Positions 1,243-5,197 of a stretch of 5,197 nt of DNA are shown in pieces; the stretch's first letter is position 1, and the number at the start of each line of letters is the position of its first letter. The stretch spans positions 1 to 5,197 of the forward strand of contig JALTZH010000049.1 of assembly GCA_027051265.1 (NCBI GenBank), in the 5' to 3' direction. The translations under genes and the position numbers were made by a program. Source of the DNA: an archaeon. Its GTDB lineage: Archaea; Hydrothermarchaeota; Hydrothermarchaeia; JALTZZ01; JALUTC01. The notes beneath the pieces are model-generated. The model was not told the origin of the DNA and searched no databases. It saw nothing but the letters and a program-made list of their open reading frames with translations.

Positions 1243-1316
1243 ATGAAAAATAAATAATTTTTGGAATATGTTTAATAATGGCAGGGTTAATAATAGGAAG
1301 TGCTTCTGTAAGAGCA
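1243..1316 (+). other. Signal peptide region split by a one-base frameshift
   Basis: ATG at 1243 reads M-K-N-K and then TAA (1255-1257). In the frame of the downstream ORF, the codons from 1254 read 'IIFGICLIMAGLIIGSASVRA' across the ATG at 1278. Adding one A in the run at 1252-1254 joins them into a textbook Sec signal peptide: a lysine-bearing n-region, about 15 hydrophobic residues, and a V-R-A cleavage motif ending at 1316. As the sequence stands, only the second half of the hydrophobic core follows the ATG at 1278. The likely explanation is a single-base deletion in the genome. Recoding is less likely because I see no canonical slippery heptamer. Confidence 0.6.
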
Positions 1317-2093
1317 AATAAAGTAAATAGTACTGAAATAAAGCATTTATTTTCACCAATAGATTATGATGTACGTAAATATCTAATTAATGAGCGTTCT
1401 TCAGAGGAATTAAATAACTATGCCAAATATTTAGTGAGAAAGTATAGTAAGCGTTTAGATGTTATTATAGACAAATTAGAAAGAATCACTGAAAAGAACC
1501 TAACACAAAAAGAGAAGGAGAAAATTAAATATTTACTAATAAGAGAATATTTAAGCAAAATTGATCAAGAACAACAATTTAATAGATATATCAATATTAG
1601 TAAAGAAATGGTAAAATTAATTCCAATAGGTATTTATAAAGATTCTAAGTATATTTATAAAATATATTACGCACCATTAAGTAGCAATGTTCCATATCCA
1701 ATATATTACTGGATACAGGTTTATCCAGATGTTTATGGTGGTAAAGGAATAGATGATTCTGGAAATAATTATAATGTTAACGGGGGTAACAATCTCTATC
1801 AAATTTCTGTTGAATATACAACAAACTATGTAAAATACACCTTATATTTCAAAGATGAAGATCATCCAGATCCAACATGGGATGCTATCTATGATGCCTG
1901 GAGACAAATATTATATGGTAGGATTGAAGATATAGAGAGCTTTACTGTCAAAGATGGTATAATATTCTTTGATGATATTTGGGATAATAATAAAACTTAT
2001 GCAGAATGGTGGGGACAATTCGTTGATTTGAGGATTTGGAGTGATTTGGAAATTATGGAAATTTTTAAAATTTTGGAAAATTTTGTTTATTGA
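1278..2093 (+). pseudogene. Secreted protein of unknown family, 5' part, interrupted by an IS607 element
   Basis: The open frame is 271 codons, but only the first 247 (to 2018) are original; codons 248-271 and the stop are read from the left end of the inserted element. The gene continues at 4050-4187, giving an ancestral product of about 304 residues including the restored signal peptide. Residues 1-13 are the end of the signal peptide. About 25-105 is a charged, helix-rich segment with many Lys and Glu. From about 107 the sequence becomes rich in Tyr, Trp, Asn and Gly ('YAPLSSNVPYPIYYWIQVYP', 'HPDPTWDAIYDAWRQI'), which suggests a beta-rich extracellular domain. No cysteine is present in the mature part, and no catalytic motif is recognised. 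The gene is probably inactive owing to both lesions. Its neighbour is a small membrane protein, which leaves open a secreted effector with a membrane partner. Confidence 0.75.
2025..2048 (+). repeat. Three GATTTG direct repeats in the left end
   Basis: GATTTG occurs at 2025, 2033 and 2043, each followed by AG or GA, within the first 40 bases of the element. Short subterminal repeats at this position are plausible TnpA binding sites. I found no equally clear set at the right end. Confidence 0.4.
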
Positions 2094-2101
2094 TGAGGGT
2101 G
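2062..2101 (+). promoter_or_regulatory. Promoter and ribosome binding site for tnpA
   Basis: TTTTTAAAAT at 2062-2071 is a fair TATA box and would place transcription initiation near 2092. TGAGGGTG at 2094-2101 resembles the archaeal Shine-Dalgarno consensus TGAGGTG and lies directly before ATG 2103, supporting that start. The signals sit inside the element, so tnpA-tnpB would have their own short-leader transcript. Confidence 0.45.
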
Positions 2102-2102
2102 T

Positions 2103-2723
2103 ATGGATCGGTTATATAAGGTTTCAGAGGTTGCGAAGAAGCTAAATGTTTCAACAGCAACTATTAGGAAGTGGATTAGGTCAGGAAGGTTAAGAGCGAA
2201 GAGGATAGGTAAGTTATGGATGATACCCGAGAACGAACTCAAACGTTTTTTAGGGGAGAAAGCAAAGGAAGTTCGAGCCGTTATTTATGCAAGGGTCAGC
2301 TCTCATAAACAGAAGAAAGATGGAAACCTTGAAAGACAAATAGATAGGTTGAGGAATTATTGTTCAGCGAGAGGATACAAAGTTGTTGAAATTATAACAG
2401 ATGTTGCTAGTGGATTGGATGAGAATAGGGAAGGATTACGCAAACTTTTTGAGATTGTTGAGAAGAATAGAGTCGATGTTGTTGTGGTTGAATTCAAGGA
2501 TAGGTTAACGAGGTTTGGTTTCGAATATCTTAAGAGATACTTCGAATTCCATAACGTTAGAGTTGAGGTTGTGGAAGAAACGGAGAAAAGCTATATGGAA
2601 GAACTCATAGAAGATTTCGTTTCCATTGTAATCAGTTTCGCCGCAAGAATATACGGGAAACGTTCCCAAAAGTTTAAGAAGATAAAAAAGGTTGTAGAAG
2701 AGGTGGTGAAGGATAACGATTAA
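2103..2723 (+). CDS. tnpA: IS607-family serine recombinase (transposase TnpA)
   Basis: TnpA catalyses excision and integration of the element through a 5'-phosphoserine intermediate. The 206-residue length fits the family. Residues 3-50 form a MerR-like winged helix-turn-helix ('YKVSEVAKKLNVSTATIRKW', then 'GKLWMIPENELKRFL') that binds the element ends. Residues 58-165 are the resolvase catalytic domain: 'YARVSSHKQ' (62-70) with nucleophile Ser66 and Arg64, 'ERQIDRLRNYC' (77-87), 'DVASGLDENREGL' (100-112) and 'KDRLTRFGFE' (132-141) with Arg134 and Arg137 of the active site. The DNA-binding domain being N-terminal to the catalytic domain is the distinctive IS607 order. A helical C-terminal tail (166-206) probably mediates oligomerisation. 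All catalytic residues I can check are present and there is no frameshift, so it could be active. tnpB follows seven bases after the stop, as in an operon. Confidence 0.93.
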   Translation: MDRLYKVSEVAKKLNVSTATIRKWIRSGRLRAKRIGKLWMIPENELKRFLGEKAKEVRAVIYARVSSHKQKKDGNLERQIDRLRNYCSARGYKVVEIITDVASGLDENREGLRKLFEIVEKNRVDVVVVEFKDRLTRFGFEYLKRYFEFHNVRVEVVEETEKSYMEELIEDFVSIVISFAARIYGKRSQKFKKIKKVVEEVVKDND

Positions 2724-2742
2724 AACGGTTGTGAAAACGGTT
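2722..2742 (+). repeat. 9-bp direct repeat across the tnpA-tnpB junction
   Basis: AAAACGGTT occurs at 2722-2730 and again at 2734-2742, a near-perfect 12-bp tandem duplication. It spans the tnpA stop codon and the tnpB GTG start. It lengthens the spacing between the GAGGTG at 2700-2705 and the tnpB start. Confidence 0.6.
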
Positions 2743-4038
2743 AAGGTTAAACTTATACCTTTAACAAAAGATGATAAGAATCAATTACTCTCTTTACTAA
2801 ATGATTATACATCAATGATAAAAGAAGCTTTAGATGTTATTGTTAGGAATGATACTCGTAGCAGAAAGAAGGCTCACAAGATATGCTATCAAGTTCTAAG
2901 GAAGAGATATCCTCACTTACACAATAAGTTCGTTCAAGAAGCATATAAAAGAGCACTAGCAATGTACCGAAGCTATAGAAGGTTGTTGAATAAATGGAGG
3001 AAATTACCAGAAATGAAAAGAAAGAAGATTTCACATCCATCACCACCAAAAGTAAAGGAGAATAATGTCATAGAGCTTCATATTGATACGTATAAGCTTG
3101 AGAAAATGCACGGTTTCTTAATACTGAAAGTGTCTAAGAGTAGTGGCGTATTTCTTAAGTTTCTTATATTGAAGTATAACCACGCTATAAGATCGCTTAA
3201 CGGTGCCAATCTTGGCAATTCTAAGATATTGATTGACAAGAATAATGTTTATTTGCTTTTAACAATACGTAGAAACGTTGAGGTTAATGTGCATAAAAAC
3301 AAGCTCTTCATAGATGTTAACGAGAATAGTGTTGATTGCTTACTGGTAGATTATGATAAGAATAAAGCCACATTGTTCTCGATAAGACATGATATTAGAA
3401 AAATACGTACCAACTATAGGAGAATAAGAAAGAGCATACAAATGAAAGTGAAAAACCCATACCTACAAAAGAAACTCCTAGCTAAATATGGTTACCGTGA
3501 GAGAAAACGTGTAGAAGATAGATTGAAGAAAATAACCACACTATTAGCAGAGATAGGTAAGCAATATAATGCAGACCTTATTAGAGAGAAGCCCAGTGAT
3601 TTAAAACTGAATGGTAAAAGGAAGAGTAAGCAACTAAATTATAGATTATCGACTTTCCCTTATCGTAAATTCATAACATGCCTCGATTATAAATTCTATG
3701 AGCGAAAATTAAACGTAGATAAAGAAAATTCCAGAAATACTTCCATTACTTGTCCTGTATGTGGTTATATTAATAAGAAAAACCGTGTTAGAGATTTATT
3801 TATATGTAAAAAATGTGGCTTCACTTTCAACATCCATTACGTCGCTTGTCTTAACCTCTTCTCCCGCTCCAATGACGGTATCGTAACCATCAGGAGCGGG
3901 AGATTATTCCTCATATCTCGTAAGACCGCTCATGTGGTAACGGTCAATGTAGCTCCCAATGATGCACCGATTAATAATGACGTGCTGAGGGAGAAGCCCG
4001 TGCACATCTCCAAAATACTCAAAATCCCTAAAATTTAG
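2731..4038 (+). CDS. tnpB: TnpB, RNA-guided nuclease-like protein of an IS607 element, with altered RuvC-III motif
   Basis: TnpB proteins are RuvC-fold, guide-RNA-dependent DNA nucleases that help their element persist at the donor site. This one has 435 residues. Residues 1-185 hold the N-terminal recognition/wedge region. RuvC-I is 'FIDVNENSVD' (193-202) with Asp195, and RuvC-II is probably 'ADLIREKPSDL' (281-291) with Glu286. A zinc ribbon follows, C341-P-V-C344 and C359-K-K-C362. The expected RuvC-III motif (F-D-R-D-x-V-A-x-x-N-L) instead reads 'FNIHYVACLNLF' (366-377), with His369 in place of the catalytic Asp. The last 60 residues lie over strong RNA secondary structure and are probably dispensable as protein. 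The GTG start is the only standard start after the in-frame stop at 2707. Translation may depend on reinitiation after tnpA, since no Shine-Dalgarno sequence lies at normal distance. It could be an inactive or regulatory TnpB, or use a rearranged active site. Confidence 0.88.
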   Translation: MKTVKVKLIPLTKDDKNQLLSLLNDYTSMIKEALDVIVRNDTRSRKKAHKICYQVLRKRYPHLHNKFVQEAYKRALAMYRSYRRLLNKWRKLPEMKRKKISHPSPPKVKENNVIELHIDTYKLEKMHGFLILKVSKSSGVFLKFLILKYNHAIRSLNGANLGNSKILIDKNNVYLLLTIRRNVEVNVHKNKLFIDVNENSVDCLLVDYDKNKATLFSIRHDIRKIRTNYRRIRKSIQMKVKNPYLQKKLLAKYGYRERKRVEDRLKKITTLLAEIGKQYNADLIREKPSDLKLNGKRKSKQLNYRLSTFPYRKFITCLDYKFYERKLNVDKENSRNTSITCPVCGYINKKNRVRDLFICKKCGFTFNIHYVACLNLFSRSNDGIVTIRSGRLFLISRKTAHVVTVNVAPNDAPINNDVLREKPVHISKILKIPKI

Positions 4039-4043
4039 TGCAC
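3855..4043 (+). ncRNA. Predicted right-end guide RNA scaffold (omega RNA / reRNA) overlapping tnpB 3' end
   Basis: In this family the scaffold is encoded at the right end of the element, and the guide is the host sequence just beyond. Here the strand can fold into a long hairpin: 3860-3870 pairs perfectly with 3893-3903 (11 bp). Above an AA bulge, 3873-3879 pairs with 3886-3892 (one C-A mismatch) around a six-base loop. A second stem joins 3924-3928 with 3941-3945. A third joins 3998-4005 with 4038-4045 and ends at the element border. The guide would then begin near 4046 (ACAACCACAACATGG). The 5' boundary is a guess, since TnpB is known to process it from its mRNA. Confidence 0.6.
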
Positions 4044-4045
4044 GG
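3998..4045 (+). repeat. Terminal 8-bp inverted repeat at the right end of the IS607 element
   Basis: CCGTGCAC (3998-4005) and GTGCACGG (4038-4045) are perfect inverted copies around a 32-base AT-rich loop. The outer arm starts at the tnpB stop codon and ends on the GG of the crossover. It may be both the last scaffold stem and part of the TnpA recognition site. Confidence 0.65.
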
Positions 4046-4187
4046 ACAACCACAACATGGAGATATGACACGTAATTATACGTATAATACTAAAATATTC
4101 GTAAGTAATGTTTGGAATCATGCGATGGATACTTTAGACAAGAATCCAAGTATGAGTAAAGTCTGGTGGTATACATCTTGGTTTTAA
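4044..4187 (+). pseudogene. Secreted protein, 3' part, displaced by the IS607 insertion
   Basis: From the second GGACAA the frame reads 'GQPQHGDMTRNYTYNTKIF' and then 'VSNVWNHAMDTLDKNPSMS', ending 'KVWWYTSWF' and TAA at 4185-4187. The Trp, Tyr and Asn-rich style matches the 5' part at 1278-2018. The frame is the same as upstream because 2031 bp is a multiple of three. It has no start or promoter of its own, apart from an internal ATG at 4065, so it is probably not translated. Removing the element restores one continuous gene. Confidence 0.75.
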
Positions 4188-4800: not shown

Positions 4801-5184
4801 AAACCACCTATTAACATAGCTGTTCATAGTTTTGTTAAGCTTCGCTTGAAAAAAGACGTTAAAACTATCTTCGTCGGTAATCCCAAAGATTTAAGAAGAA
4901 ACAATAACAAAGACAAGAAAGTTAATGCTATTATCCACAACTTCTTCAGCTATAGATATATCATCCAAAGAATTAAAATCACAGCCAAAAACTTCGGTAT
5001 TGAAGTTAAACCCGTAAATGAATATAATACCCCCCTCCCGTTGCACTTGGTGTGGATCAGCCTTGTTCATTAAAAAAGGTAATTGTTTAAATGTCTTAAC
5101 TGCGGTGTAGAAGCTCATAGAGACGTCGTAGCTACGCTAAATATAGCCCTCGTCTCAATGATGTCCTCTAAGTCTACTCCGTAA
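4801..5184 (+). pseudogene. tnpB: TnpB 3' remnant (IS200/IS605-type) with two frameshifts
   Basis: The first frame reads 'HSFVKLRLKKDVKTIFVG' then 'NPKDLRRNNNKDKKVN', 'IHNFFSYRYIIQRIKIT' and 'FGIEVKPVNEYNT'. These are standard TnpB sequence around RuvC-II and the approach to the zinc ribbon. At the C run 5030-5035 the frame shifts by one and continues 'SRCTWCGSALFIKKGN' (first Cys pair). Near 5083 one base is missing and the original frame returns with 'FKCLNCGVEAHRDVVATLNI' (second Cys pair and RuvC-III Asp), ending at TAA 5182-5184. The N-terminal half is absent: stops precede 4801. The canonical Glu of RuvC-II appears here as Asn ('VGNPKDL' instead of 'VGDLKG' or 'EDL'). It is a dead gene from an element distinct from the IS607 copy, whose TnpB differs throughout. 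Confidence 0.82.
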
Positions 5185-5191
5185 GGAGCAG
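5174..5191 (+). ncRNA. Small hairpin at the end of the tnpB remnant, possible scaffold RNA piece
   Basis: CTCC-GTAA-GGAG (5177-5188) makes a four-pair stem with a GNRA tetraloop. Two more pairs lie beyond an A-C mismatch. It overlaps the stop codon of the broken tnpB, where the guide RNA scaffold of such elements normally begins. The stem is short and the window ends here, so the call is tentative. Confidence 0.25.
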
Positions 5192-5197
5192 GATTAG

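What the first reader, a model, noticed from the sequence alone, without database searches (positions are those of the whole stretch)
2013..4049. Base-exact IS607 insertion: the disrupted gene can be rebuilt in frame
GGACAA stands at 2013-2018 and again at 4044-4049. Removing the 2031 bp between them rejoins E-W-W-G-Q to P-Q-H-G-D without a frame change, and the open frame then continues to a stop at 4187. This fixes both ends of the element from the sequence alone. It also shows that the last 24 codons of the 1278-2093 ORF are element sequence, so a plain ORF call gives a chimeric protein and misses the true C-terminus. Few insertions can be delimited so precisely from one copy.
Basis: partly seen in the sequence, partly recalled or inferred. 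Interest (0 to 1): 0.7.

Follow-up and report, generated by a model that had tools for sequence, protein, structure and literature searches.

The report
IS607 insertion; borders misplaced by 6 bp

Summary
The raw facts are right: GGACAA stands at 2013-2018 and 4044-4049, removing 2031 bp keeps frame, the rejoined frame stops at 4187, and the last 24 codons of the 1278-2093 ORF are element sequence. An IS607 element (TnpA serine transposase plus TnpB) does interrupt a real gene: uninterrupted homologues align across the junction.

The "base-exact" border is wrong. Seven other right ends continue ...GTGCACGGGCAACCA(C/T) before diverging, so CCA 4050-4052 belongs to the element. Eight left ends share GA(C/T)|(T/A)ATTC. 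The shared crossover is A(C/T): AC at 2015-2016 and 4052-4053, a 2037-bp unit. A second copy, inside another tnpB, heals exactly at the same AC. GGACAA is a chance hexamer; the element's half exists only because this copy has A at 4046.

Characterised IS607 elements cross over at GG; this lineage uses AC/AT, prefers (A)G upstream, has 257-272 bp miniature derivatives, and its TnpB carries His for the third RuvC Asp. It is a modest variant of a known family, useful mainly as a correction.

The parts
1278..2016 (+). 5' part of the interrupted gene (secreted-type protein of unknown function), up to and including the left crossover AC
   Evidence: tblastn to uninterrupted homologues G017:C19 and G018:C60. 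The homologues carry an N-terminal hydrophobic segment.
2015..2016 (+). left crossover dinucleotide AC (core A[C/T] in 8 of 8 copies; preceded by G in 8 of 8)
   Evidence: Alignment of 8 left ends
2017..4053 (+). IS607-family element, 2037-bp unit (equivalently 2015-4051)
   Evidence: Right ends of 8 copies conserved to 4053. Empty site GGACAACACGG in homologues. Second copy heals at AC.
2017..2093 (+). element left end read through by the chimeric ORF (its last 24 codons)
   Evidence: left-end conservation in other copies
2103..2723 (+). tnpA: IS607 serine transposase, 206 aa, MerR-like HTH plus resolvase domain, catalytic Ser in the RVSS motif at residues 64-67
   Evidence: NCBIfam IS607 transposase 207 bits (cut-off 110), Pfam Resolvase and HTH_17; PDB 6dgc ISC1926 TnpA E=6.6e-43
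2731..4038 (+). tnpB: 435 aa RNA-guided nuclease-like protein; RuvC Asp (IDVNEN) and Glu (REKP) kept, third catalytic Asp replaced by His (NIHYVAC)
   Evidence: NCBIfam guided_TnpB and Cas12f2; alignment to TnpB/Cas12f; residue positions
3858..4053 (+). conserved right end, predicted reRNA scaffold region overlapping the tnpB 3' end; kept in tnpB-less copies
   Evidence: 8-copy alignment A1; consensus fold with 7 of 27 pairs showing both-side changes
3996..4005 (+). 5' arm of the terminal stem GCCCGTGCAC, pairing with 4038-4047
4038..4047 (+). 3' arm of the terminal stem GTGCACGGAC; 4046 A (G in 7 other copies) creates the spurious GGACAA
4044..4049 (+). second GGACAA: element-internal and coincidental, not a border
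4052..4053 (+). right crossover dinucleotide AC
   Evidence: A in 8 of 8, C/T in 8 of 8, then flanks diverge
4054..4187 (+). 3' part of the interrupted gene, ending at TAA 4185-4187
   Evidence: Homologues align across the junction to VWNHAMD.LD.NPSMSKV
4846..5197 (+). tnpB remnant of another element; carries uninterrupted CATAGAGACGTCGTAGC at about 5115-5131, the target motif of a second copy

Best explanation
An IS607-family element (tnpA, tnpB and a structured right end) integrated as a double-stranded circle by serine-recombinase exchange over a 2-bp core, A(C/T), into the sequence GGGG-AC-AACATGG of a gene for a secreted-type archaeal protein. The unit is 2037 bp, with AC on each side and no target duplication beyond the core. 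Removing it restores a 290-codon gene reading ...AEWWGQHGD.... Shown by sequence comparison: the borders, the core, the empty site and a second independent insertion. Inferred from the family: a circular intermediate, TnpA doing both excision and integration, and the right end acting as the guide-RNA scaffold of TnpB, with (A)GAY at the left junction as its target-adjacent motif.
For: Right ends: 8 copies are conserved through CAACCA (one CAACTA) and Y, then diverge. Left ends: 8 copies read GA(C/T)|(T/A)ATT. Empty site: homologue DNA is GGACAACACGG (GQHG) in G017:C19 and G018:C60; the 2037-bp excision gives GGACAACATGG and raises tblastn from 136 to 141 and from 122 to 127 bits. Second copy: C139 and C119 are two halves of one miniature copy (103-bp exact overlap). 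Its flanks joined at AC align to the tnpB remnant in this window, and the BLAST pieces of that remnant end at query base 279 and restart at base 278, a 2-base overlap that falls on AC at 5123-5124. TnpA and TnpB assignments. No target duplication and exchange over 2 identical bp are the IS607 mode (PMC6188088, PMC4058570).
Against: The closest clean uninterrupted homologues are only about 40-46% identical; no empty copy of this very locus was found, and the one other record of the locus, WAOB01000021.1, is also occupied and ends inside tnpB. Two of six two-ended copies (C178, G002:C153) have AT on one side and AC on the other, so the second core base may tolerate a mismatch or has mutated. At 2017 this copy has A where the others have T, so crossover anywhere within the shared ACAA cannot be excluded from this copy alone.
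Confidence: 0.94

Rival explanations
1. One reading: a 2031-bp element between two GGACAA copies, in effect a GG core as in canonical IS607.
For: GGACAA is present on both sides and the frame is kept. GG is the core of studied members (PMC6188088).
Against: CAACCA following the right GG is conserved in copies at different sites (one has CAACTA), so it is element DNA. No left end except this one has GG next to the border. Homologues lack the extra PQ. A hexamer match is expected by chance.
Confidence: 0.03
2. The 1278-2093 ORF is the natural gene and the downstream 4054-4187 frame is unrelated.
For: A plain ORF exists.
Against: Homologues continue past GQ into HG....VWNHALD.DDNPSLDKV, matched by 4054 onwards, and none ends like the 24-codon tail; scores fall from 141 to 111 and from 127 to 99 bits for the chimera.
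Confidence: 0.01
3. The junctions are an assembly or binning artefact of a metagenome.
For: The genome is a 257-contig assembly, and several copies of the element lie at contig ends.
Against: A separately deposited contig (WAOB01000021.1) has the same left junction. Both flanks together match one homologous gene across the junction.
Confidence: 0.02

Closest known systems
ISC1926 / ISC1904 (Sulfolobus IS607-family elements)
   Same: TnpA is close to the ISC1926 catalytic domain (PDB 6dgc, E=6.6e-43); tnpA-tnpB order; no target duplication; archaeal host.
   Different: Chen et al. (PMC6188088) give GG termini and GG targets for the elements they study; here the core is A(C/T).
IS607 (Helicobacter pylori) and ISXfa1
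   Same: Exchange over a 2-bp identity. IS607 prefers (G)GG (PMC6188088) and ISXfa1 TnpB depletes a GGG motif (PMC10711439), parallel to (A)G-AY here: one preferred upstream G next to the core.
   Different: Core GG there against AC/AT here.
Miniature derivatives of insertion sequences (MITEs)
   Same: 257, 261 and 272 bp copies keep about 80 bp of left end and a conserved right end without complete tnpA or tnpB.
   Different: They keep IS607-type ends without terminal inverted repeats, including the structured right end.
TnpB / Cas12f nucleases
   Same: RuvC Asp and Glu and zinc ribbon aligned.
   Different: His in place of the third RuvC Asp, here and in the G002 copy; other lineages in the class also show His there.

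Membership tests
IS607 family | TnpA is a serine recombinase with an N-terminal MerR-like DNA-binding domain | tested here: met
   NCBIfam IS607 transposase 207 bits against cut-off 110; HTH_17 at 4-51 and Resolvase at 59-192
IS607 family | tnpB downstream of tnpA | tested here: met
   guided_TnpB profile 81 bits (below its cut-off of 100); Cas12f1-like TNB domain above its Pfam cut-off
IS607 family | No target-site duplication beyond a 2-bp crossover | tested here: met
   Only AC need be shared; the empty site is restored as in homologues and in a second copy
IS607 family | Crossover dinucleotide GG (as in the characterised members) | tested here: not met
   Core A(C/T) in 8 copies. GG is a property of the studied members, not a stated requirement of the family: PMC10711439 speaks of matching dinucleotide motifs. 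It therefore marks a variant rather than excluding membership.
IS607 family | Transposition through a circular intermediate | not testable with these tools
   Needs DNA or read data
Active TnpB RNA-guided nuclease | Intact RuvC D-E-D triad | tested here: not met
   Third Asp is His in NIHYVACLNL, aligned to NADYNAARNI of Cas12f
Active TnpB RNA-guided nuclease | Right-end guide RNA | tested here: inconclusive
   Conserved, partly covarying right-end fold (8 sequences, covariation term -0.27); no Rfam family reaches its gathering score

The most novel reading that the evidence does not exclude
An IS607 lineage that has moved its crossover and target motif from GG to (A)G-A(C/T), tolerates a mismatch in the second core base, and carries a TnpB with His for Asp that is either nuclease-dead (a binder) or has a rearranged active site, while its right end is spread by miniature copies.
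Probability: 0.35. Interest if true: 0.45.

Novelty: new variant of a known kind. Interest (0 to 1): 0.3.

Why it matters
It shows that an IS607 border read from one copy by a short repeat can be wrong even when the frame agrees, and that comparison with other copies corrects it. It also gives one archaeal IS607 lineage in which the crossover bases differ from the GG of the studied members. That makes testable how TnpA's 2-bp core and TnpB's adjacent motif change together.

Tried and rejected
A viral-contig scan with the host protein gave no relatives, with TnpA only one distant match (44% over residues 4-53), and with the right-end motif nothing. Rfam gave no match at gathering score (one Yersinia sRNA match far below it). 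The weak 'adhesin Lsa23' hit of the host protein (33.8 bits against cut-off 270) was not taken as a family assignment, and Pfam and PHROGs gave nothing usable. The AlphaFold2 model of the host family had mean pLDDT 60.6, too poor for a fold search. A GG core was rejected, and so was core C(N): it fails in four of six two-ended copies, whereas A(C/T) fits all six at the first base and four of six at both. The paper search for the MAG name found nothing.

Full report
GGACAA is at 2013-2018 and 4044-4049, and excising 2031 bp keeps the frame to the stop at 4185-4187. The element between them is an IS607-family unit: tnpA at 2103-2723 (NCBIfam IS607 transposase, 207 bits; ISC1926 TnpA structure 6dgc, E=6.6e-43) and tnpB at 2731-4038.

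The hexamer is not evidence for the borders. With the two flanking zones shuffled base by base, a shared 6-mer appears in 84% of trials and an in-frame one in 45%. The frame test cannot help either, since the true unit, 2037 bp, is also a multiple of three.

Other copies decide. The genome holds several partial or miniature copies, and a related genome, G002, holds a 932-bp deletion derivative 93-96% identical over the shared parts. Aligned at their right ends, eight copies read CACG(G/A)(G/A)CAAC(C/T)A(C/T) and only then diverge. Only this copy has A at 4046; the other seven have G, so the GGACAA match rests on one base difference inside the element. Left ends in eight copies read G-A-(C/T), then (T/A)ATT. 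The only bases shared by both sides are A(C/T). In this window they are AC 2015-2016 and AC 4052-4053, a spacing of 2037 bp.

Uninterrupted homologues give an independent test. G017:C19 and G018:C60 encode 290 and 293 aa relatives that align across the junction. Their DNA at the site is GGACAACACGG, protein GQHG. Excision of 2037 bp gives GGACAACATGG, protein GQHG; excision of 2031 bp gives GQPQHG.

A second insertion confirms the core. Contigs C139 and C119 end inside one miniature copy (103-bp exact overlap). Its flanks rejoined at AC give CATAGAGACATCATTGCTACG, a tnpB catalytic motif (ETHRDIIATLNI), and align to the uninterrupted tnpB remnant in this window. When that remnant is searched against the genome, the C139 piece ends at query base 279 and the C119 piece starts at 278: the two-base overlap is AC 5123-5124.

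Mechanism. IS607 elements integrate without target duplication by serine-recombinase exchange over two identical bases; IS607 itself prefers (G)GG (PMC6188088, PMC4058570). Here the same reaction appears to use A(C/T) with a preferred upstream G (8 of 8) and A (7 of 8). By analogy with ISXfa1, where GGG is the motif of TnpB and the fixed right-flanking base is part of the RNA scaffold (PMC10711439), (A)GAY may be this TnpB's motif; that is inference. The right end folds with a terminal stem 3996-4005/4038-4047 and some both-side changes, which fits a guide-RNA scaffold but is weak evidence with eight related sequences.

TnpB keeps the first RuvC Asp and the Glu but has His where other TnpB and Cas12f proteins have the third Asp. 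The G002 copy has the same His, and several other TnpBs of the class have His there too. Whether it cuts DNA is open.

The interrupted gene belongs to a family of proteins with an N-terminal hydrophobic segment and a conserved DEDHP....YD..R....GR.ED.E.F core; no known domain was found. Verdict: a real IS607 insertion and a useful reconstruction, but a wrong border and an overstated claim of exactness from one copy.

Noticed in passing
window 2731-4038 (TnpB, motif NIHYVAC starting at residue 367): Third RuvC catalytic Asp replaced by His; shared with the G002 copy (L040), and His also occurs there in L042, L063 and L067 (DRHVNAAINI).
   Followed up: partly
G000:C22:223-494, C155:4909-5169, C178 (L032), C139/C119: Miniature copies that keep IS607-type ends and a conserved right end (C22, C155 and C178 are 272, 261 and 257 bp); these three share an internal segment not found in the window's element.
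   Followed up: partly
G002:C153 (L070 1414-2346): 932-bp deletion derivative that fuses the start of tnpA to the end of tnpB; it is 93-96% identical although G002 is in another family of the order, so recent transfer or shared sampling is likely.
   Followed up: no
window 1257-1280; L020 (G000:C107): The host gene's hydrophobic N-terminus continues upstream of ATG 1278; a paralogous fragment in C107 begins ATG TTT GGA where the window has ATT TTT GGA, so the true start may be ATT 1257 or lost.
   Followed up: partly
window 4846-5197: tnpB remnant of a family with 20 matches in this genome (itself included); at least two members are split by insertions (C139/C119 at the catalytic HRD codon, and a gap at C232).
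   Followed up: partly
L023 (WAOB01000021.1): The same occupied locus is deposited in a MAG labelled DPANN group archaeon, although relatives' genomes are up to 2.4 Mb; the label may be doubtful.
   Followed up: no
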